DNA from: Microvelia longipes
Lineage: Eukaryota; Arthropoda; Insecta; Hemiptera; Veliidae
Length of the DNA stretch: 64,000 nt
Assembly: GCA_018340805.1 (NCBI GenBank)
Contig: JACMZG010001914.1
Coordinates: 8,432,424-8,496,423, forward strand
Direction: 5' to 3'
Made by a program: the position numbers and the translations under genes. Positions 4,966 through 59,355 of this stretch are shown here, piece by piece. The stretch's first letter is position 1. Each line of letters opens with the position of its first letter. The notes below the pieces were generated by a model. That model saw only the letters and a list, made by a program, of their open reading frames with translations. It was not told where the DNA came from and did not search any database.

Positions 4966-7824
4966 CTAACATTTTTGATTAACTGTTTGAAATTTAAAAT
5001 ATAATGGTCCAAAATAATCTAGTCCTGTGTTTTGAAAAGCTAAATTTTGATTTGTTCTGAATTCAGGAAGAGGGGCAAAAGGAGGCCATTTGAATTTTAC
5101 CCCTTCAATCTTTGTGCACGTTTGACAAGTCTTTAAAACCCAAATTATTTTACTTCTAGCCTTTGGAATCCAAAATAATTTACGAATTACAGCTAAAGTT
5201 TGATTGATGCCAGTATAAAAATGTAATTCATGAAAATAGAAAACTAATAATTTCGTAAAGTGATTTTTTCCAGGTATCAATATAGGAAATTTTTGATCAA
5301 AATAATCAGAGTTTTGTATTCGGGCTGAACATCCTAGTAAACCATCATTATCCATAAATAAACCTAACTGCTCTACAATAAAATTTCGTCTACCGACTTT
5401 TAAATCCTTTAAAATATCTGAGCAATACCTATTCTGAATATATTTAAACCATAATTGCTTTCCTAACTGATCAATTTCCAAATAATTAAGATTTTCTTTT
5501 TTAAAAAATTTGATATAATAATCAGTAATCCTTATTAATTTCTGGGTAGAATCATTTTCTAAAATTTGTTTAAATGGTGATTCTAAGATTTTGATGTTAT
5601 TAAAAATTATTTCATTTACATTTATTTTGTGGGTAATTTGCAAACATTTATGTATTGCTTCATTAATATTATTGTCTAACTGATCCTGAATTATTTTATT
5701 ATATTTTTCTAATAAATCTAATTCTTGTTTTTTAAACAAGGATTTAAGTCTAGCTAAAGCCAAAAAATAATTTTCATGTACCTCGGGGGGATATTCTCTC
5801 CAAGGCCTTAAAACAGAATAACTACCATTTACCATTTTTGTACTTAGATTGAAAGCTTGAACTGCCAGATCATCCTCTATTTCCATAGGACTTTCCCTAA
5901 TACCAATATTCTCTAAACTCCTTAGTTTCTCTATTTCTACACAACTATTTCTGCCTAATGGATAATCTGGTTTATCTAAGTATTTAAATTCGTTATCTAA
6001 TTCTTTAACAAATGTTGTACAACTAATCGACTCTTTGTTGGTTCCCCTTTTCATCCTACCACTAAGAATCCATCCCATCTTAGAGCTGACTAAATGTAAC
6101 CCTTTACTAACCTCAATTTTTTCTGTCTCTATTAAATCAAAGTAATATCCGTTACCAATAAGAATATCAATTTCTTGATCTGAAAATTCTATATCACCCT
6201 CTGCAAATCTTAAGTCTGGATATTTTTCTCTAATTTCCCAAGCCATAGGATTAATTTTGTATTCTTTCACAATCGTAGGTACCACATTAGCATTTATTTC
6301 GAAATTGTTACCATCTTTTAATTTAATATAAAAATTTACTGTAGATGTAGAATATGCCTTTGGAGTGTTACTACCAAAGGAATATATAGATACATGTTCC
6401 TTATTCTTTCTTTTAAGATTTAATAATTTAGCTGCCCTCTCCGTAATATAAGTTCCCTGGCTCCCACTATCCATCAAGACCCTAAACTTTTTAGTATCTT
6501 TAGATTCCCTATTAACTAATTGTACCACCGCAGTCTGTAAATTAACGCTAACCAGTTCCTCCTCATCACCTAAATCTGATTCTACACCTATTAAATTTGT
6601 GGATTTTTCATTTGATGTATCTTTTTTGCCTTCATCAAATTTTTTCGGGCACAGACTCCTATGATGATGTCTGTACTTCCTACAATAATAGCAAGGCTTG
6701 TTCACCTTACAGTCTCTAAAATTATGGGATTGGGACAGACAAATATAACAAGCTCCCTTTATTGAATTTTTTCTTTCTTCAATAGTTTTGAACTTGGTAC
6801 ACTCATCTGTCCAGTGTTTCTCTTTACAAAATCTACATATTTGTACTAATGCTTCAGAAGTATGTAATGCACCTGTTGTTGGATAAAATGGTTTACTAGT
6901 AGATAGTTTATTATTATAATCTAATATACCTCCGGTTTGTTTATATCCACTGAATCGAGCATCCAAATTTTCTCTAGCAGTTATAATCTTTTTCAAATTG
7001 TTTCTAAGCTCAGATGGTTTTAAAGAAGATACATCTTTTTCTTCTTCTAATTTAAGAATAACTGTTGGAGGAAACTTGGAAACTATAAGAGGTACCAACA
7101 AACCGTGACCGTGATTAATATCTTCTCCTAAAGACTCCAAAGAACGTAATATAATTTCAATTTTATCTAAAGTTTTCCGTAATTCTTTGGTTTGATCTTT
7201 AGAAGAATATATCAACCGTAATTCATCATATAAATTTGATTTAATTGTATCATTGTTACCAAAACGTTCTACCAGTAAATCAATAGCTACTTTATAATTT
7301 TGCTCAGTTAATGTCAAACCCGCTATACAATTTAAAGCATCTCCCCTCAAATATGACTTTAAATAATTAAATTTTACCACACTTCCGATATCCCTAGAAT
7401 GAACTGTTGTTTCAAATGAATCCCAAAATTCAGGCCATTTTTTTGTATCCCCATAAAATTTAGATATTTCAATTTTAGGTAATTTAACCTGCCCTGTTTG
7501 TTCATACGTGATCGCTTTAGGGGGCTCCTCCATTACTTCTAACTCGCTCAACATTTCATCTCCCTCAAAGCATTTCTCCATATGAACTTCTATTTCAGGT
7601 CCAATTACCATTTCCTCGTCAGGATTCCTATTCAAGATTTCTATCAATTGATTAATCATTTCCTTATACTTGTCCAGGAGACGAGTTAAATCTTTATGAA
7701 GTGTTTTAAGTTTATTACACTTGTACTGATTTTGGATTATTAATTCTTTTCCGGCATTAATAATTTCATTTAATTTCTTTTGAAACGATTTCAAACTAAT
7801 TTTTAATCCAGTAATGTTACTCAT
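4966..7824 (-). CDS. BEL/Pao Gag-protease-integrase fusion lacking RT and RNase H
   Basis: The ORF has 952 residues from the first ATG after the 5' LTR. Residues 1-70 are coiled-coil-like, and about 115-290 match the Gag region called DUF1759 (KFYGDTKKWPEFWDSF). Zinc knuckles follow: C330-X2-C-X3-H-X4-C, C359-X2-C-X4-H-X4-C and a third at C378-C392. The aspartic protease has D452-S-G. Residues 660-718 match the N-terminal edge of Pao RT (VLRPWREYPP). The sequence then goes directly to the linker and the integrase zinc domain (H865, H868, C900, C903) and the first integrase Asp (D936). The RT catalytic region and RNase H are absent, yet the frame is open. This is either a lucky in-frame deletion or a maintained non-autonomous form that supplies Gag and protease. 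Its products would act in cytoplasmic particles. Confidence 0.85.
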   Translation of the reverse strand: MSNITGLKISLKSFQKKLNEIINAGKELIIQNQYKCNKLKTLHKDLTRLLDKYKEMINQLIEILNRNPDEEMVIGPEIEVHMEKCFEGDEMLSELEVMEEPPKAITYEQTGQVKLPKIEISKFYGDTKKWPEFWDSFETTVHSRDIGSVVKFNYLKSYLRGDALNCIAGLTLTEQNYKVAIDLLVERFGNNDTIKSNLYDELRLIYSSKDQTKELRKTLDKIEIILRSLESLGEDINHGHGLLVPLIVSKFPPTVILKLEEEKDVSSLKPSELRNNLKKIITARENLDARFSGYKQTGGILDYNNKLSTSKPFYPTTGALHTSEALVQICRFCKEKHWTDECTKFKTIEERKNSIKGACYICLSQSHNFRDCKVNKPCYYCRKYRHHHRSLCPKKFDEGKKDTSNEKSTNLIGVESDLGDEEELVSVNLQTAVVQLVNRESKDTKKFRVLMDSGSQGTYITERAAKLLNLKRKNKEHVSIYSFGSNTPKAYSTSTVNFYIKLKDGNNFEINANVVPTIVKEYKINPMAWEIREKYPDLRFAEGDIEFSDQEIDILIGNGYYFDLIETEKIEVSKGLHLVSSKMGWILSGRMKRGTNKESISCTTFVKELDNEFKYLDKPDYPLGRNSCVEIEKLRSLENIGIRESPMEIEDDLAVQAFNLSTKMVNGSYSVLRPWREYPPEVHENYFLALARLKSLFKKQELDLLEKYNKIIQDQLDNNINEAIHKCLQITHKINVNEIIFNNIKILESPFKQILENDSTQKLIRITDYYIKFFKKENLNYLEIDQLGKQLWFKYIQNRYCSDILKDLKVGRRNFIVEQLGLFMDNDGLLGCSARIQNSDYFDQKFPILIPGKNHFTKLLVFYFHELHFYTGINQTLAVIRKLFWIPKARSKIIWVLKTCQTCTKIEGVKFKWPPFAPLPEFRTNQNLAFQNTGLDYFGPLYFKFQTVNQKC

Positions 7825-7927
7825 TTTAAGTTTGGTCGAAAATAAAATATAAATTAATCAAAAAATATTACGAAAAATCTTCAAATTGTTTTTTATTTTT
7901 TCCTTTACTATCGCTTCAATGCTACCA

Positions 7928-25989: not shown

Positions 25990-26129
25990 AGGACAAGCTA
26001 AGCGACTCCAAAAACGTGTTGGAGTATATAGTTAACGATGTTTACATTCTGAGGACGAGAGAAGCGAATACAAAGTAGGAGGAAGAGCGCAGCGAATCCG
26101 ATATGATAGGGAAAAGTTCCATGTACCCC
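25990..26129 (-). repeat. RepA copy, part 1 (interrupted by the capsid-element)
   Basis: Contains gaggacgagagaagcgaat and the head gaaaagttccatgtacccc; it resumes at 31042 with taccccgtaccc. The break falls exactly at the 6-bp target duplication. Confidence 0.8.
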
Positions 26130-26903
26130 AGTAGGGGAGAAAAGCCGATTCTGGAGCCTCCACCTCCTCCTCCACCTCCTCCTCCTCCTCCACCTCCTCC
26201 TCCTCTTCCTCCTCCTCCACCTCCTCCTCCACCTCCTCAACCATCTCTTTATAGTTTTATATCCCCCCTCTCTTTTGCTTTGCATAGAATAATAACAGTA
26301 ACATTAAATATGCTTTGCATAGAAATAAATAGGTCCATATAGGTAGAAGCAGGATGATTTTAGGTATGATCTAGTAGACCACCCTAGATTATGAAATGTC
26401 TCTCTTAGTAAAAGCCTTCCCACCACGTCAAGGTGGAGACACATCGGAAGGTGTACAGTGCCCCGTCCTCGCACTGTACTATGGCGACCATCCTCTTTAA
26501 AAAAAAATTCGCCTCTATATATTTTTTGTATTTTTTATATTTTTAATTTTTTTTGTATTTTTATATTTTTATTATTTTTTTATTTATAAATTTTTTTTAA
26601 ACGTATTTACAATTACACTTACATCTCGTTAGCGCCATATAGGTTTACGGGACGCTATGCCACGCCAGTGACCTTAAAAGATGAATATTGCGGTTTACGG
26701 GACGCTATGCCACGCCAGGGACCGCTCTGAGGGTTTACGGGTCGCTATGCCACGCCAGGGACCCTCTATGGGTTTACGGGACGCCATGCCACGCCAGGGA
26801 CCCAGTTATGGCACGCTTCGCCACACTAGAGTTCCATCTCGTATTTGCGGCAGCTGCTGAGACATGAGTGTAAGTGTAACATATGATTAAACTTTAAGAA
26901 TAA
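26130..26903. repeat. Left TIR of capsid-element
   Basis: Inverse of 30271-31041, with small indels. From the outside in it holds a (CCT)n-type tract (26158-26240), a segment with a short hairpin near 26412-26435 (ccaccacgtcaaggtggag), an AT-rich stretch, and four repeats of ggtttacgggacgctatgcc at 26642-26810. Confidence 0.9.
26640..26812. repeat. Tandem repeat in TIR, four units
   Basis: Each unit is ggtttacgggacgctatgcc plus acgccagggacc, separated by 6-18 bp. The same array is at 30365-30540 in the right TIR in reverse. Such subterminal arrays can bind a transposase or replication protein; here that is only inference. Confidence 0.85.
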
Positions 26904-26929
26904 CCGCGAAATAAATCCCCCACAAATGA

Positions 26930-27443
26930 AACTCACTTGGCTACACATGAAACCGGTAGTAAATTTATGGTTAAACCAAGTGCAGGCCCATTTACGAGCC
27001 ATTTATACAAACTCCATACTCGAGCATGAACGCAAGCAAATTTTTTATTATGCTTATGAAGGGGCAAGGCCTCCAGCTATAACTCAAGAACTAATTTTGG
27101 GACATTCTATCGCAAGTAAATCTAGAATGACGCAATTATTTGGCAAGTTTTTTCAAACGTACTTTTACCTTTTACGACAAAGTGTGTGTACCGATTAGAT
27201 AAAAGTTAAACACTAAATACAATCGCTCGTACTCAACATCACCGTCATCCCATTTATTCCGTGAAAATTAATGTAAGCCAAGAATTTGTTTCATAGATTT
27301 AGAATCTTGAATGTAATTTGCAGTAGTAAAAATAACCAGTTCGAAGACGATTTCGTCTCCAGGTCCAAACATGCGACTTTAACAATGACTTGCCCCTCAT
27401 TATCTACAAACCCTTGAATATCTATAATAGCGGTAGAAGGCAT
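26930..27443 (-). pseudogene. Decayed minus-strand gene of the capsid-element (DIQGF type)
   Basis: From an ATG at 27443 the minus strand reads MPSTAIIDIQGFVDNEGQVI. Coding then passes to a second frame (GDEIVFELVIF ... an in-frame TAA at about 27273 ... WDDGDVEYERL) and a third, His/Cys-containing stretch ending near the TIR. The DIQGF start and the later WDDGD motif match, as far as can be recalled, a family of uncharacterised insect proteins linked to mobile elements; the role is unknown and a nuclease has not been shown. At least two frame changes and several stops make it a pseudogene. A TATA-like tatataag lies at 27489-27496 (minus). The plus-strand frame 26926-27198 over it is its antisense shadow. 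Confidence 0.55.
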
Positions 27444-27488
27444 CTTGATGCGGAAGCCGAGATACAAATGGCCATATCCCCTTATAAA

Positions 27489-27496
27489 CTTATATA
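27489..27496 (-). promoter_or_regulatory. TATA box of the minus-strand gene
   Basis: The minus strand reads tatataag, 46-53 bp upstream of the ATG at 27443, a spacing like that of the two plus-strand genes of the element. Confidence 0.45.
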
Positions 27497-27504
27497 TTCA
27501 TCTT

Positions 27505-28140
27505 GTTGGAGCCGGTGTGGAGCCTATATGACCCCATTTAGAGCTATATCGGAGCCACTTAGAGCCAGTGTGGAGCCGATTTGGAGCCATCTAGAGCCTA
27601 CATGAGCCATCTTGAGCCTATATGAGTCGAATAGGAGCCACTTTGGAGCCATAGAGCCGTAGGAGCCAGAGGAGCCACTTTGGAGCCTATATGAGCCGAG
27701 AGCCTATATGAGCCAATTAGAGCCGCGATTTAGAGCCGAGCCTATATGAGCCATTTGGAGCCTATATCGGAGACATTTAGAGCCGCTTTGGAGCCATTTA
27801 AAGCCGATTTGGAGCCAATATGAGCCATTTAGATATGAGCCGGAGTGAGCCATTTAGAGCCGGAGGGCTATATGAGCCATAGAGCCGACCTATATGAGCT
27901 ATAGAGCCTATATGAGCCAGTTGGAGCCTATATGAGCCATTTGGAGCCGGATGGAGCCGCTTTGGAGCCTATTGAGCCATTTGAGCCGGAGTGGAGCCAT
28001 TATAGCCGGGAGCCTATGAGCCATTGGAGCTATATGAGCCAAGTAGAGGCCTATATAAACCATTTAGAGCCGCTTTGGAGCCTATATGAGCCATTTAGAG
28101 CCGATGTGGAGCCATCTAGAGCCGATTTGGAGTTGTGTTG
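27505..28140. repeat. Degenerate GAGCC array between divergent genes
   Basis: About 60 copies of gagcc, spaced mostly 9-12 bases apart (for example ggagccatttagagccgatt), fill the gap between the minus-strand and plus-strand genes. The plus-strand frames across it (rich in EP, WSH, LEP) are repeat translations. It may have expanded as a minisatellite or act as a control or replication region. Confidence 0.8.
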
Positions 28141-28204
28141 CAGCTAATACGGGTCTAACTGGAGTTTTTGAAGCCGCTTTAGCGGTGTTTTAGCTTTCGT
28201 TTAG

Positions 28205-28241
28205 TATATATATAGAGTTAGTGGAGCTCCAACTTTAGTAT
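28205..28241 (+). promoter_or_regulatory. Core promoter of the zinc-finger gene
   Basis: TATATATATAG at 28205-28215 and an initiator-like TTAGTATTG at 28235, about 30 bp later. The downstream gene at 29934 has TCAGTATTG in the same place. Confidence 0.6.
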
Positions 28242-28262
28242 TGAGCCAGACACCGAGCAGAG

Positions 28263-28630
28263 ATGTTCTCCAAGATACGTGATTCGAGCCTCTATAAGAA
28301 GAGATTTGAAAACTTGACATTTAGTTGTCCAGACTGCTGTAAAAAGTTTATACATAAAAAGAATTTACTTCGACACCAACGAGATAAACACTGTGAGGGG
28401 GTTGAACGCGAGGATGGTTCAGAGTTGGGATTCTACAAGGACGCCATTGCAGTAAACATGATAAGTCAATTGAAAACTATAATAACTCTAGCGAGGCAGT
28501 ATGTGGATCGGAAAAGGATAGAAAAGAAGAAGAAGAAGACGATGAGGAGGAGGATGAAGAAGATGATGAGGAGGATGAACCTATTGATGATGTAGTAAGA
28601 AAAAGACATAGAAGAGCCAAAAATGATTGA
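28263..28630 (+). pseudogene. C2H2 zinc-finger protein with acidic tail, frame-shifted
   Basis: From ATG 28263, residues about 20-45 form a C2H2 finger (C-X2-C-X12-H-X4-H, start FSCPDCCKKF). The original frame then runs into Lys/Arg/Met low-complexity and stops near 28596. In the next frame the same DNA encodes a long Asp/Glu tract followed by a basic end (RKRHRRAKND) and a stop at 28628-28630 that overlaps the next gene's ATG. This suggests a single frame change between about 28440 and 28530. The acidic tract and finger point to a nuclear DNA-binding or regulatory protein of the element. A TATA/initiator promoter lies directly upstream. Confidence 0.6.
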
Positions 28631-29831
28631 GATGTTAAATTTAAGTGAACACCCCGAATATGATGAATCTATAGAGAGTCTAGAGTATCATACTCACTAT
28701 CCGTACGCAAACTCAAAGCTAGACGTCGGAGAAGAGATACGGATTCCAGTACAACTCCAACATTTATACGCTTCCGAGTGAAATTTTTATATATTTGGAA
28801 CTATCATTTTTAAAAGAAGGGAAATACGGCACCGGCGAAGCACAGACTCATCAACAACGCCTTCCCGTTTTTATTCGACGAGATCCGGTATGAAATTTGT
28901 GGAGTTGAGATTGATAAAGTCAGAAACCCCGGAATGACTTCAACTCTAAAAGGAATTGCGTCTCACGCGCCTATATCGTATTCCCTAACAAATATGGGAT
29001 GGACAATACCCTTCAATGAAGTACAAGAAGAATCATCCACCCGGTACAACGTCTGTCTACCTTTATCCTCGTTACTCGGATTCGCGGAAGATTACCGAAA
29101 AGTTTGATAAACGTAAAGCAAGAGCTAATTTAGTAAGCCAGATACGATTCAAATTGTTACGCGCAGCATGTTCCATACGTCGATACGGCTTCACGGTCAG
29201 AAGTTCGCGAGAAAGTTAAAATTGAACTGCTATCGCTTTGTTGGAAAATACCTTACGTTTCGGTTAACGAAGTTCAGAAACTAAATTTAATTAATTATTT
29301 AAAAACAGAAAAAATAATTTCTCTCCATTTCCGAGCGTGGGATATGCACGAGTATCCGCTATTACCTACGTCAAACCGGCAAGTATGGTCGATTAAAACT
29401 TCGACTCAAGTCGAGAAACCGCGATTTTTAATTTTGGCCTTTCAAAAAGGTAGAAATAACGTCGTCGATAAGGCATCCAGTTGTTTCGATCACTGCGACT
29501 TGACAAATGTCAAGCTTTATCTCAATTCACGAGTGTTCCCCTACGATGATTTAAATTTAAAATTCTCCAAAATAAATTTGCTTTATTGTACCACATGTAC
29601 GCGCGTTTCAAAACGTCGTACTACAACACTTATCAGAGTCTACCGTACGTATCCTTTACAGATTTTAAGAATAAATGTCCTGTTGTAATCATTGATTGTT
29701 CGAAACAATCAGAGTCTATCAAAAAGGGTCCGGTAGATGTGAGATTAGAATTTGAATCTGAAAAAGATTCCCGGCAAATACTACCGTACTGTCTATTGTT
29801 ACACGATAGATTAGTTCAGTACAACCCCTGA
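28623..29831 (+). pseudogene. Double-jelly-roll capsid-like protein, broken
   Basis: About 400 codons from ATG 28623 (overlapping the previous stop) to TGA 29831. Recognisable blocks in order are a PSEIFIYLE strand, FLFDEIRYEICGVEID, GFAEDYRKV, FRAWDMHEYPLLP, VWSIKTSTQVEKPRF, FDHCDLTNVKLYLNS and a C-terminal CSKQSESIKKGPVDVRLEFE. These fit the double-jelly-roll-like family found in insect genomes and related to major capsid proteins of Polinton-type viruses. Breaks: frame changes near 28780, 28845, 29104 and 29583, and stops TAG TAA at 29131-29136. The protein can no longer be made whole. Length and block order suggest it was complete on insertion. Assignment is by pattern recognition, not by a search. 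Confidence 0.75.
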
Positions 29832-29888
29832 CTAGCATTGTGCATAAAATGACATGAATAGACATGTCTGGTCGAGGGGGGGAGTATG

Positions 29889-29925
29889 TATAAATAAAGA
29901 AAGCAGAGCAATAATAAATCAGTAT
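29889..29925 (+). promoter_or_regulatory. Core promoter of the 117-residue ORF
   Basis: TATAAATA at 29889-29896 and TCAGT at 29919-29923 (A+1 at 29921) are 32 bp apart, the normal arthropod TATA/initiator spacing. The start codon follows 13 bp after the initiator A. Confidence 0.7.
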
Positions 29926-29933
29926 TGCGCAAG

Positions 29934-30287
29934 ATGTCGACCATTTACCATCTAAGTGACGGTAAAAAGGTATTAGTTTGTTTAGTTAAAGGTGTAGCTT
30001 TCTTGAGATTAGAACATGGTAAAAGAAGTGTAAACATTCACGTGTCCGATTTTGAGTTGTTGAGATCCGCGAAAAATGAAATTGATAATTATTTTGTAAA
30101 ACGAAGTAAAGAAGATGTACAACTTGATCGAAAATTTGGTTTAATAAAAGTAAGATTGGTTAATCCTAAATTTCACGGACGTCAAGTTATTATTCGTCCG
30201 ATTTGTTCGAATGAAGAAGATAAAATATTTGTTTGTTTTAAAAAAACCAGAGTGGGATTTATTTTCGAGTTTATTCTTAGAGTTTAA
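29934..30287 (+). CDS. 117-residue protein of the capsid-element, unknown
   Basis: The frame is intact from ATG 29934 (MSTIYHLSDGKKVLVCLVKG), chosen because it is the first ATG after the TATA/TCAGT promoter. It has alternating hydrophobic residues, then IHVSDFELLRSAKNEI and a basic middle. The first ~55 residues have a strand-rich then helix pattern that loosely recalls PC4/p15 single-strand DNA-binding domains; this is a weak guess. The stop codon lies in the inner edge of the right TIR. It is the only gene of the element without a break, so it may be newer, shorter by chance, or under selection. Confidence 0.6.
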   Translation: MSTIYHLSDGKKVLVCLVKGVAFLRLEHGKRSVNIHVSDFELLRSAKNEIDNYFVKRSKEDVQLDRKFGLIKVRLVNPKFHGRQVIIRPICSNEEDKIFVCFKKTRVGFIFEFILRV

Positions 30288-31041
30288 ATCATATGTTACA
30301 CTTACACTCATGTCTCAGCAGCTGCCGCAAATACGAGATGGAACTCTAGTGTGGCGAAGCGTGCCATAATTGGGTCCCTGGCGTGGCATAGCGACCCGCA
30401 AACCCATAGAGGGTCCCTGGCGTGGCATAGCGACCCGTAAACCCTCAGAGCGGTCCCTGCGTGGCATAGCGTCCGTAAACCGCAATATTCCATCTTTAAG
30501 GTCACTGGCGTGGCATAGCGCCCCGTAAACCTATATGGCGCTAACGAATGTAAGTGTAATTGTAAATACGTTTAAAAAAATTTATAAAATACAAAAAAAT
30601 AATAAAAATATAAAAATACAAAAAAAAATTAAAAATATAAAAAATACAAAAAATATATATAGAGGCGATATTTTTTTTTAAAGAGGATGGTCGCCATAGT
30701 ACAGTGCGAGGACGGGCACTGTACACCTTCCCGATGTGTCTCCACCTTGACGTGGTGGGAAGGCTTTTTACTAAGAGAGACATTTCATAATCTAGGGTGG
30801 TCTACTAGATCATACTAAAATCATCCTGCTTCTACCTATATGGACCTATTTATTTTTATGCAAAGCATATTTATTGTTACTGTATTACACTATGCAAAGC
30901 AAAAGAGAGTGGTATAAAACTATAAAGAAGTGGGGAGGAGGTGGAGAGGAGGTGGAGGAGGAGGTGGAGAGGAGGAGAGGAGGAGTGAGAGGAGGTGGAG
31001 GAGGAGGTGGAGGCTCCAGAATCGGCTTTTCCTCCCCTACT
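30271..31041. repeat. Right TIR of capsid-element
   Basis: Inverse of 26130-26903. The ggtttacggg-type repeats are at 30365-30540 in reverse, the hairpin at about 30735-30765 and the GGA-rich tract at 30925-31015. A few indels distinguish the two arms. Confidence 0.9.
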
Positions 31042-31066
31042 TACCCCGTACCCAATTTTTATTTTA
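31042..31066 (-). repeat. RepA copy, part 2, after the capsid-element
   Basis: taccccgtacccaatttttat continues the RepA head cut at 26129; the first six bases are the target duplication. Confidence 0.75.
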
Positions 31067-55320: not shown

Positions 55321-56652
55321 TCATAAGAAACTGCTATCCTCTTCTCTAGCTCCTTCTCTTTGCCTCAGTTGATCAGCGTGTTTTCTGTTAATCACTCCCC
55401 CGACTTTAACTTTATATGAGAGCTCTCCTGATCTCTCCTCCACTATTCCTGCTTTCCATCCGTTCCCATCTTCTTTCCATACCCATACTTCATCCCCCTT
55501 TTTAAATTCTCTTGTTTTATGTCCTTTATCGTGATATTTTTTCTGTCTCCATATTCGTTCTTGAATTGTTTCTTTATAATTAGGGCGAAGGTTGTCTAAT
55601 AGTGTAGGAATTCTTCGTCCTAATAACATATCTGCGGGAGATAACCCAGTAGTCTGTTGTGGTGTGTTTCTATAACTTAAAAGAAAAGACTGCAGTGCCA
55701 AATTTGGATCTTTTCCTTCCTTCCTACAACTCAGAAATCTTCTTTTAAATGTTTTTATTGTTCTCTCTGCTAAACCATTTGCCTTCGGATGATATGGAGT
55801 TGTTCTTATATGTTTGATGTTATTTTCTTCACAAAATGCTTCAAATTCTCTACTGGTTAGTTGTGGCCCGTTGTCTGAAACTATCTTGGATGGTACCCCG
55901 AATCTACAAAACCATTCTCTAAGTTTGTTAATAGTTGTCAATGTTGTGATTTTTTTTAGTTTAGCAATTTCGATCCACTTGGAGTATGCATCAATTAATA
56001 CAAGCCACTGATGTCCCTCGAATGGTCCTGCAAAATCAATATGCAGTCTTTCCCATGCTCGACTTGGTACATTCCAGGGGTATAGAGGAACCTCCTCTAT
56101 ATTATCCCGGTGTTCCTGGCATGCCTCACATCCACGAACAAAGTCCTCCACAGCCTTACTCATGCCAGGCCACCAAACATAGTATCTTGCCAAGGCCCGC
56201 ATAGCTGATATTCCTGGATGCCCCCTGTGTAAAATTTGTAAAGTTCTTTTACGTAACTGAGTTGGCACGATAATTTTTTCTAACCAGGTTAAAACTCCAT
56301 CTTCCCACTCGAGTTCATCTCTCTTTCTTTGATATTCGCCTAACTCCCCTTCAAGTTTCTTATTTGGCCATCCATTTTCAATATATGCTATTACCTTCTT
56401 CAGTGTAGAATCTTCCTTTGTTGCCTCTTGTAAGTGTCCTTTCTGATATAAACAATCTCTGTTTTCATTTATTAAAACCTTAATTTCTGAAGCCTCACTT
56501 TCCCATAATAATTTATCACTTTCTTGAATTGGCAGCCGTGACAACGCATCCGCACATACATTTTCAGCCCCTTCTCTATATCTAATAGTATAGTGATAAC
56601 TGTTTAGCTTTAGTGCCCATCTGACTAATCTGCCATTTGTGATTTTTGACAA
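55321..56652 (-). pseudogene. Gypsy integrase with RNase H tail
   Basis: A 443-codon frame, the last part of Pol. Residues 1-40 are the end of RNase H (CADALSRL). The integrase zinc domain has H142, H145, C175 and C178 around HPGISAMRALARYYVWWPGM. The catalytic triad is D206 (HIDFAGPF), D260 (IVSDNGPQ) and E296 (NGLAERT), with the classic 35-residue gap between the last two. A GPY/F-like module (W-K-A-G-I-V-E-E-R-S-G) is at 398-410. The ATG at 56652 is not a natural start; Pol enters from the RT frame across a break near 56685. The enzyme itself looks undamaged. Confidence 0.85.
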
Positions 56653-56685
56653 ATCCCTTTGAGTCCCGAAAATTCTTTCTAGTGG

Positions 56686-57800
56686 TTTGTGATCTGTTTC
56701 TAGAATAAATTTCTCCCATAGATGTACTGATGGAATTTTGTCACCCCATAGACTAATGCTAATGCTTCCCGGTCTATTGAAGCATATTTTTGTTCTGCTG
56801 AATTTAGCACACTGGAAGCAAATGCTACAGGTCGTTCCGACCCATCATCCATAAGGTGCAGCAGAACCGCGCCTAATCCATTCTCCGAAGCGTCACAAAC
56901 CACTTTGACTTGTTTGTTTAAGTCATAAGGTACCAATATATCTTCACTTGTAATAATATTTTTTACTTTGTTAAAACAGTCCTCTTCCACATGAGACCAT
57001 TTCCATTGTGTTCCTTTTCTCAGAAGTTGGTGTAAGACTTTGCATTGTCCTTGCAAATTAGGTGCAAAACGAGAATAATAATTTACCATTCCCAAAAACG
57101 ATTTTAACTGACTAACATTACCTGGTGATGGTGCCTTTTTTATTGCTTCTATTTTATCATTCATTGGGTGAATTCCGTCTTTGTCTATCATGTGACCAAG
57201 ATATTTCACTTCTTTTTCATAAAACCTGCATTTGTTCCATTTTACTCTTAAACCCCGTTCTTTAAGTCTTTTCATAACTTCTTCTACGGTTTTAATATGA
57301 ATTTCACTGTTGGGACCAGTAATAATTATATCATCTAATAAAAATACCAACATTTGGCAGTCTCCTAGCAATTCTTCCATGTACCGCTGAAAGACCCCGG
57401 GGGCTGATGAAATTCCGAACGGCATCCTGGTGTAGGAAAAATAACCATAGTGCATAGCAATGATAAGATACTGTTTTGAATCTTTATCCACCTCAATTTG
57501 CAAATATGCATCTTTTAGGTCGATGACAGTAAACCTTGTTCCATTCACTAACTTGGAAGTTAAATCTTCAAAAGTAGGCATAATGTGTTTATCCTCGATC
57601 ATATTTGGATTTAAAGTTACTTTAAAATCCCCACAAATCCTAATCTGCCCCTCAGGCTTTTTTACATTTACTGTCGGGGTAGCCCATTCAATAGGTGTTA
57701 CACTAGGGTCTACTTTTTCTATAATCCCTATTTTCTCTAACCTTTCCAATTCATTTTTTACCCCTTGTCTTAGTGGAAATGGGACCCTCCTAGCCGTAAA
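56686..57800 (-). pseudogene. Gypsy reverse transcriptase and RNase H
   Basis: The frame is open at least from the start of the palm-finger region (ATG 57749 is internal). Motifs: D77 in FTVIDLKDAY; MPFGISSAPGVFQRYMEELL; the catalytic D139-D140 as LLDD rather than the more common YxDD; the thumb; then RNase H D286 (VVCDASENG) and E328 (DREALALVYG). The frame ends at GRNLF where one base appears to be missing in a short A/T run near 56688. Upstream it is separated from the protease part by a change in an A-run near 57825. It copies the element's RNA in cytoplasmic particles. Confidence 0.85.
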
Positions 57801-58470
57801 TGCTATTGGTTTGGCATCTTTTTTTTAAAAATATTTTTGCTTTAACTCCCTTTGCAGTACCTAATTCGTCTTTAAAAATTTCTTTGTATTTTGTTTTTAG
57901 TTTTTCAATCTCTTTTAATACTTTTTCGTCATTATTAGTGTTATGATCCTCATTTATTTTACATATTCGGACTTCTGAAGGTAAATTAAGATTAAAAGCT
58001 ACTATCCAGGGAATCCCAAAAAGTGGAACATCGATAACATCTATTACAAATGTATTTAATGTTTTGGTGTTCCCGTTTAAAGTTACATTAACTGACAATT
58101 TACCTAATACTTTTAACATGTTTTTTCCATACCCCGAAACTTTAATCGTCGTTTCCGTTAATTTTGGATTTCCTAATTTATCCCAAAAGTTTCTATCTAT
58201 AGTTGAAATTCTAGCCCCAGAATCAAATTCCATATCACAATTCCGCCCGTTAATTTTAACTGTTATAACTGCCCTTGGATGTTTTCCTACTTTTCTAACT
58301 AATTTTATCTCATCATCCTCGGATTCAGTTTCATCACTCTGAAATTTTTCCACTTTTCTAGTTGTTTTTCTCTTTTCCCCCTCCATTGAGTATTTTTGTT
58401 TAGAATGACCTTTACTACTTTTACAAACTTTAGAAAAATGCCCAGTGCGGTTACAGAGCCTGCACGTCAT
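57790..58470 (-). pseudogene. Gypsy second zinc knuckle and protease
   Basis: 226 codons. Zinc knuckle C3-X2-C6-X4-H11-X4-C16, a charged linker, then the aspartic protease with D83-S-G (MEFDSGARIS) and the flap and substrate-binding region up to about 180. It lies in a different frame from both Gag and RT. The frame change at its end lies in a run of eight As (57822-57829). Confidence 0.8.
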
Positions 58471-59246
58471 ACCTCTTGCTGGACATTGAGCAAAGGATGT
58501 CGCTCATAACCACAATTCCAGCATTGTTGATTTTTACCAATCTTATAACTAAGTTCTCCCTTTTTAGAATTATTTTCAACTTTATGTATGATATTATTAC
58601 TACCACTAGTCCCTACTTCTTGTACTTCAGTGTGGGCCTTATCAATTGTATCGGCTAAATCAAGAACAGTATTGAAAGATACCCGTACCCCTTCATCATT
58701 CGTTCCTGCCGGCCACCTTTGCCTAATTTCTATTTCTAATTTAATGTTTTGACAACCTGCCACAAACCTATCTCTGAGCCTTTCGTCTATCGTTAATGCC
58801 GAATATTTGCAAGGTTTACTCAACTCTTTCAGCCTATCAGCAAATTGAGTTAAGGATTCAGATGTGTCCCTAACAGCTCTTTCAAAATGCATACGGGCAG
58901 CAAATATAGTAATTTCAGGTTGGTAAATCTTTATGAACCCTTGTTTTATTTGGTCTAAAGTACAATCGTCTAATGATTTTGGAATCATATGGTTCCGTAT
59001 TGCTCTGAGGGGTGTAGGGCCTACATAAGCTAATAAAAGATCTTTTCTTGCTATTTTAAATTCGTCTTGATCGCCTCCAAGTCCCTTAACCCTACACATC
59101 CTCTCGAATTGTTCGATATATTCCTCCCATGGATTCAATTTATCGTAACCATGAAAATGAAATTTTGACATTTTTAACGAAATGTCATTAAATACCTCCT
59201 CATCCTCTTCTTCCTGTAATATAACATTACTCCGTCTTCTAGGCAT
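58467..59246 (-). CDS. Gypsy Gag
   Basis: 259 codons from the first ATG after the 5' LTR (22 bp away). Residues 1-30 are charged, 30-200 form a helical capsid-like domain (PWEEYIEQFERMCRVKGL), and a basic linker leads to a zinc knuckle starting C242-X2-C245-X4-H250. The last Cys of this knuckle is only found in the overlapping frame, so Gag is probably cut short by a one-base loss near 58485, unless the element shifts frame here by programme. Confidence 0.8.
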   Translation of the reverse strand: MPRRRSNVILQEEEDEEVFNDISLKMSKFHFHGYDKLNPWEEYIEQFERMCRVKGLGGDQDEFKIARKDLLLAYVGPTPLRAIRNHMIPKSLDDCTLDQIKQGFIKIYQPEITIFAARMHFERAVRDTSESLTQFADRLKELSKPCKYSALTIDERLRDRFVAGCQNIKLEIEIRQRWPAGTNDEGVRVSFNTVLDLADTIDKAHTEVQEVGTSGSNNIIHKVENNSKKGELSYKIGKNQQCWNCGYERHPLLNVQQEV

Positions 59247-59268
59247 CTTTAATTTGTTACTGCGCCAC

Positions 59269-59355
59269 TGTAATAAGGACGGTTTAAGCCTCGTTATAAA
59301 CTATATTGTAAACATTAATAACAATTTAATATAATATGACATAGCTGTCATTACA
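59269..59355 (-). repeat. Gypsy 5' LTR (87 bp)
   Basis: Same ends as the 68-bp copy with 19 extra bases (gtaaacattaataacaatt). An LTR this short leaves little room for a promoter, so control elements may lie in Gag or the flanks. Confidence 0.9.

What the first reader, a model, noticed from the sequence alone, without database searches (positions are those of the whole stretch)
26124..31047. Small capsid-gene element with 770-bp TIRs and a 6-bp target duplication
Both ends are fixed twice over: by the inverted repeats and by the exact reunion of a RepA copy across TACCCC. The cargo is a double-jelly-roll capsid-like gene, a C2H2 finger gene, a 117-residue ORF and a minus-strand DIQGF-type gene. 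Polintons share the 6-bp duplication, AG ends and capsid fold but are usually 15-20 kb with polymerase and integrase. A 4.9-kb unit with capsid genes and no visible replication or integration genes would be a miniature, helper-dependent form or a separate virus-like lineage.
Basis: partly seen in the sequence, partly recalled or inferred. Interest (0 to 1): 0.92.

Follow-up and report, generated by a model that had tools for sequence, protein, structure and literature searches.

The report
Miniature Polinton with zinc-fingered capsid
A shortened relative of a virus-like jumping element keeps its ends and its shell gene but lacks copying and insertion genes, so it probably depends on full-length relatives in the same genome; in several copies its shell protein carries an added zinc finger.

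Summary

The host genome explains it. Of 18 paired copies read, 14 have exact 6-bp duplications. At 16 of 96 capsid sites polymerase B lies upstream. Reading between the two genes at one such site gave an A32-type ATPase, an rve-chromo integrase and a probable protease: a Polinton with the same repeats. The window element is its helper-dependent miniature.

It is not a plain deletion. Miniatures carry a DIQGF gene (13 of 14), a GAGCC array of 31-115 units at 9-11-bp spacing (14 of 14), and a C2H2-acidic leader in one open frame with the capsid start (5 of 13); none was found in three long loci. Capsid codons of 8 miniatures show dN/dS 0.20. Another short class carries the array with polymerase instead of capsid.

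Best reading: a Polinton satellite with its own modified capsid. That the finger binds the array and steers packaging is inferred, untested.

The parts
26124..26129 (.). target duplication TACCCC, left
31042..31047 (.). target duplication TACCCC, right
26130..26919 (+). left terminal inverted repeat (790 bp), starts AGTAGGGGA; CCT tract, AT tract and four ~39-bp repeats (26635-26802)
30254..31041 (-). right terminal inverted repeat (788 bp), 93.6% identical to the left
26930..27444 (-). DIQGF-type gene, frame-broken here; TATA box at 27496-27491; left limit approximate
27509..28123 (+). array of 51 GAGCC units on one strand, 34 of 50 spacings 9-11 bp
28263..28625 (+). C2H2-acidic leader (121 codons), in the frame of the capsid start but frame-broken here; TATA box at 28205
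28626..29854 (+). double-jelly-roll major capsid protein gene (PF21738), 9 frame-breaking steps
29937..30287 (+). 116-aa ORF of unknown function, intact, stop included; TATA box at 29889; also in the three long loci

Best explanation
The element is a non-autonomous, helper-dependent miniature of a Polinton (Maverick) family with long members in the same genome. Shown: its repeats and ends are shared with long forms; at one long locus the genes read are polymerase B, A32-type ATPase, rve-chromo integrase, a probable protease, capsid and the 116-aa ORF; the miniature keeps only the last two of these. Shown in the copies read: miniatures have three additions, a DIQGF gene, a one-strand GAGCC array at helical spacing between two divergent TATA boxes, and a C2H2-acidic leader in one open frame with the capsid start in 5 of 13. 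Inferred: the helper's polymerase copies it from its ends as linear DNA and the helper's integrase inserts it. Inferred and untested: the finger on its own capsid protein binds the GAGCC array, so that array-bearing DNA is packaged preferentially. If so it is a satellite virus with a private packaging signal, and polymerase-only short elements with the same array could be packaged along with it.
Against: No binding, packaging or mobility evidence. Leader dN/dS 0.299 has an interval of 0.07-1.24. Eight of 13 leaders read are not open into the capsid, and the window copy is broken. Only 20 of 32 other sites from one search were read, chosen for likeness to the window's repeat. The one long locus read in most detail is composite, without a matching duplication at its nearest ends. 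The protease call rests on motifs seen by eye; no family hit. The tree is unrooted, so miniatures need not be a clade.
Confidence: 0.8

Rival explanations
1. Segment of a split (multipartite) genome: capsid-type and polymerase-type short elements, with related repeats and the same kind of array, are two segments of one virus, as proposed for Drosophila Vesanto virus.
For: L038, L045 and L047 share repeat sequence and array with the miniatures but carry polymerase and no capsid hit. Vesanto virus segments have similar terminal repeats (PMC8363768).
Against: No short element with integrase, ATPase or protease was found among the 18 copies read; a one-piece form exists at 16 sites; the outer repeats of L038 and L047 do not match the window's.
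Confidence: 0.15
2. Plain internal-deletion derivatives of the long Polinton, carrying capsid as passive baggage.
For: Broken frames in many copies; deletion-like and palindromic copies exist (L044, L045).
Against: DIQGF gene, array and leader were not found in long loci L034, L036 and L052, so they were added, not left over; capsid codons of miniatures show dN/dS 0.198 with interval below 1; TATA boxes at constant distances.
Confidence: 0.12
3. The GAGCC array is a promoter or enhancer for the divergent DIQGF and capsid genes, with the C2H2 leader as autoregulator; no role in packaging.
For: The array lies between two divergent TATA boxes and on the capsid strand upstream of the leader in the 14 miniatures.
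Against: In polymerase-type L038 the array lies beyond the 3' end of PolB, and it persists in gene-poor L044 (105 units).
Confidence: 0.35

Closest known systems
Polintons/Mavericks (class Polintoviricetes, family Eupolintoviridae, formerly Adintoviridae)
   Same: 6-bp duplication, long inverted repeats, AG ends (these three recalled and from the finding), double-jelly-roll capsid; the long relatives have PolB, integrase, ATPase, capsid
   Different: 4.9 kb instead of 15-20 kb (size from PMC4028283); no polymerase, integrase, ATPase or protease; added DIQGF gene, GAGCC array and C2H2 leader on the capsid
Satellite viruses and virophages
   Same: carries its own capsid gene and apparently depends on another element for replication
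   Different: the helper is a Polinton of its own family resident in the host genome; no particles known
Drosophila Vesanto virus and Bidnaviridae
   Same: small units with terminal inverted repeats, polymerase B on a separate unit
   Different: capsid here is double jelly roll; a one-piece form exists; integrated with 6-bp duplications
Non-autonomous DNA transposons
   Same: ends shared with autonomous copies, more numerous, lacks the mobility genes
   Different: keeps a selected capsid gene and has added genes of its own

Membership tests
Polinton (window element itself) | 6-bp target duplication | tested here: met
Polinton (window element itself) | long terminal inverted repeats with AG...CT ends | tested here: met
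Polinton (window element itself) | double-jelly-roll major capsid protein | tested here: met
Polinton (window element itself) | protein-primed polymerase B and rve integrase | tested here: not met
   six-frame Pfam scan of the element
Polinton (window element itself) | packaging ATPase and cysteine protease | tested here: not met
   the long form's protease itself has no Pfam hit, so for the protease this scan is weak
Polinton (window element itself) | 15-20 kb | tested here: not met
   4,912 bp
Polinton (long form in the same genome) | PolB, integrase, ATPase and capsid in one unit | tested here: met
   all four read at one locus, PolB and capsid linked at 16 sites
Polinton (long form in the same genome) | adenain-type protease and penton | tested here: inconclusive
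   162-aa ORF with protease-like motifs by eye, no family hit; 272-aa ORF not identified
Polinton (long form in the same genome) | 6-bp target duplication | tested here: inconclusive
Non-autonomous derivative of a Polinton | shares ends with autonomous copies and lacks their mobility genes | tested here: met
Non-autonomous derivative of a Polinton | moved in trans by the helper | not testable with these tools
   only inferred from shared ends and TSDs
Satellite virus | own capsid gene, no replicase | tested here: met
Satellite virus | forms particles | not testable with these tools
   none
Segmented DNA virus of the Vesanto/bidnavirid kind | complete gene set spread over co-replicating segments with shared ends | tested here: inconclusive
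   capsid-type and polymerase-type short elements seen, no integrase-type; one-piece form exists

The most novel reading that the evidence does not exclude
A Polinton satellite virus with a private packaging system: the miniature's capsid protein carries a zinc finger that recognises a helically phased GAGCC array found here only in short elements, so capsid-type and polymerase-type short genomes are packaged together at the expense of the long helper, approaching a bipartite virus.
Probability: 0.27. Interest if true: 0.93.

Novelty: new variant of a known kind. Interest (0 to 1): 0.75.

Why it matters
Whether animal Polintons behave as viruses is still open. A derivative that drops replication and integration genes but keeps a selected capsid gene is indirect evidence that capsids matter for its spread. 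The leader and the phased array give a simple test (does one bind the other?). Such elements may have been passed over: the survey that established Polinton capsid genes removed elements under 10 kb as incomplete (PMC4028283).

Tried and rejected
No relative was confirmed in IMG/VR with capsid queries (one search used an ORF that proved to be out of frame) or the 116-aa ORF, nor in GTDB genomes with the capsid alignment. An 18-base TIR-tip pattern matched two IMG/VR contigs (L001, L002), about what chance gives by my rough estimate; not followed. Rfam: nothing at gathering scores. The tip and the 39-bp TIR repeats did not fold clearly better than shuffles.

'TIR tip repeats the array motif': strong in the window (0 of 1,000 shuffles), but GGAGCC stands at the left tip in only 7 of 18 copies, so dropped as a rule. 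'C2H2 is a separate gene overlapping the capsid start': seemed so in the window, dropped. '90-aa plus-strand ORF at 26926': lies antisense to the DIQGF gene; dropped. 'Two-segment genome' was my first reading after and was demoted when PolB and capsid proved linked at 16 sites. Contig lengths of the 120 listed relatives showed no preferred unit size.

Rows dropped before counts: capsid dN/dS used 8 of 14 miniatures (9 translated, L033 left out for stops; window, L035, L043, L048, L049 not given), leader dN/dS 7; the tree used 13 of 14 (not L035, which lacks most of the gene); the fusion reading used 13 of 14 (not L051, whose leader is split). Pairs in the pooled dN/dS are not independent. The open-frame lengths run across stops inside the match, so '500 or more' means that the frame is open upstream of the capsid; 7 of those 12 rows have stops inside.
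Full report
What is there. The window lies in a 664.6-Mb, 1,470-contig assembly. At 26130-31041 is a 4,912-bp element flanked by TACCCC on both sides, with inverted repeats of 790 and 788 bp at 93.6% identity. Joining the flanks gives a sequence that matches three other copies of the flanking repeat across the junction. Between the two repeats there are 18 substitutions in 772 aligned sites and 25 indels; in a slightly shorter alignment 19 of 24 indels were single bases and 17 lay next to a like base. The capsid copy has 9 frame-breaking steps, all losses, and no in-frame stop in 405 codons. Decay and assembly error cannot be separated here.

The rest of the element. A six-frame scan finds no polymerase, integrase, ATPase or protease domain. 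A minus-strand DIQGF gene and a plus-strand C2H2-capsid frame diverge from a 615-bp array of 51 GAGCC units on one strand, 34 of 50 spacings 9-11 bp. TATA boxes stand at nearly constant distances: 57-58 bp before the C2H2 start in 11 of 13 copies, 59-60 bp before DIQGF in 12 of 14 (the window has 52), 48 bp before the 116-aa ORF in 11 of 12.

Other copies. The inner repeat has 352 first-look candidates, 40 scored, which make 32 sites besides the window. Seventeen of the 20 hold both repeats; with the window that is 18 copies. Fourteen of 18 have exact 6-bp duplications, all different; two lie in TA repeats and are ambiguous (L037, L042), one is offset by a base (L038), one has none (L051). Fourteen are capsid-type miniatures (4.3-6.0 kb, and L040 of 9.2 kb with an inserted element), three carry polymerase instead (L038, L045, L047), one matched nothing but the DIQGF start (L044). 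Of the 14 miniatures 13 have the DIQGF start (not L049), 14 the array, 13 the 116-aa ORF (not L035) (window). Repeat-to-repeat divergence runs from 0.2% to 3.2%, so insertion went on over time.

The helper. Capsid protein P0002 has 111 matching rows, 96 sites; polymerase has 103 rows, 59 sites (both searches scored only part of their candidates, so these are lower bounds). At 16 of 96 capsid sites the polymerase lies 2-9 kb upstream on the same strand; 80 have none. Reading 3.9 kb between the two genes at one such site gave, in order, an ATPase (Pox_A32 1.8e-7, above cut-off), a 272-aa ORF, an integrase (rve 1.4e-11, chromo 6.1e-6), a 162-aa probable protease (motif by eye only; no hit) and an 81-aa ORF. 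L036 and L052 show the same order in broken frames. The polymerase hits PF03175 at 3.8e-32 in L045 and has N-terminal C2H2 fingers in L038 and L047. Four of five long-form repeats match the window's at 88-92%; the fifth, L054, matches only its first 193 bp, at 80%. Apart from the unidentified penton this is a Polinton gene set. At that site the two nearest ends are 12.7 kb apart without matching duplications; the left flank instead matches the flank of a further repeat 23 kb away, so the site is composite.

Why the miniature is more than a deletion. In 5 of 13 miniatures read, the C2H2-acidic leader runs in one open frame into the capsid start; L033 and L050 then have stops further on in the capsid. 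Among near-full-length capsid rows genome-wide, the frame reaches 500 or more residues at 12 of 29 sites without polymerase, 5 of the 12 with no stop inside, and at 0 of 7 with polymerase. The 120 listed relatives are 392-428 aa, so the fusion is not usual among them; the other 1,238 were not seen. Leader, array and DIQGF start were not found in long loci L034, L036, L052; L053 has no C2H2 hit; L054 and L055 have no array. In the capsid DNA tree 13 miniatures and 3 long copies are parted by one branch (92/95; 90% of bootstrap trees); the tree is unrooted, so either side may be the clade. Pooled dN/dS among 8 miniatures over 120 codons is 0.198 (0.089-0.416); for 66 leader codons in 7 copies 0.299 (0.07-1.24), so selection on the leader is not established. 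TIR tips fall in four clusters, three of which hold both miniatures and long forms, and both ends of a copy agree in 17 of 18. This suggests exchange of tips with helpers while the capsid genes stay apart.

Signs of linear replication. L045 is a palindrome over its whole 8,691 bp (97%) with an exact duplication outside it. L044 has 1,265-bp inverted arms on either side of an array. In L039 the left end carries a reversed copy of the right end, capsid tail and 116-aa ORF included. Snap-back products of this kind are known from linear DNA genomes copied from their ends (established knowledge); protein priming here is inferred from the polymerase family.

How it probably works. The helper's polymerase and integrase act on the shared ends (inferred). 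The miniature supplies its own capsid protein, changed by a leader with one C2H2 finger, and offers 31-115 candidate sites at helical spacing (sequence shown; binding untested). The finger itself scores below Pfam's cut-off (18.5 against 25.2). The array's persistence in polymerase-type and gene-poor copies fits a DNA-level signal such as packaging better than a promoter alone, but a regulatory role remains possible; I hold the two about equal.

Literature. PMC4028283 (parts 1 and 2 of 4) gives Polinton size and gene set and says that elements under 10 kb were removed. PMC8363768 (passages) gives the segmented Vesanto virus and adintoviruses of 13-15 kb. PMC11071308, PMC12451622 and PMC6431247 were seen as passages. 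Searches for non-autonomous Polintons or Mavericks, for the PF21738 domain name and for zinc-finger and helper combinations, and the broader listings, showed no such element in the titles and abstract starts listed. The library is open-licence only and Repbase was not searched, so non-autonomous Polintons may be named there.

Noticed in passing
L045:897-9587 (G000 C1361): 8,691-bp polymerase-type element that is one palindrome (97%), with an exact 6-bp duplication (TACATG): looks like an integrated snap-back genome.
   Followed up: partly
L039:725-6338: Left end carries a reversed copy of the right end, so the inverted repeat has grown over the 116-aa ORF and the capsid tail.
   Followed up: partly
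C707:46883593-46906574 (L054, L053, L055, L034): Two PolB-capsid units in a row with three repeat ends; the outermost flanks share ATAATT 23 kb apart: nested or head-to-tail copies.
   Followed up: partly
G000 C558:59.82, C518:1.96, C562:34.34 Mb: A second Polinton lineage with capsids 43-46% identical to P0002, also linked to polymerase.
   Followed up: no
G000 C518:35827942 and C510:45355619: Capsid matches inside reported open frames of 2,862 and 2,041 residues; may be runs of N or a fusion.
   Followed up: no
L038:4035-6317 (-), L045:5238-7415 (+): Polymerase with several C2H2 fingers at its start (L038) and an Endonuclease VII-like motif before the polymerase domain (0.0003-0.0006, below cut-off).
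   Followed up: no
window 4966-7857 (-) and 55321-59300 (-): LTR-retrotransposon-like frames: a 963-residue uninterrupted Pao/Bel-like frame and a broken Gypsy-like one (named by eye).
   Followed up: no
BFVD entry R9XLG5: A Cotesia sesamiae bracovirus protein matches the capsid model at 17% identity with low TM-score; perhaps a Polinton remnant in a wasp virus.
   Followed up: no
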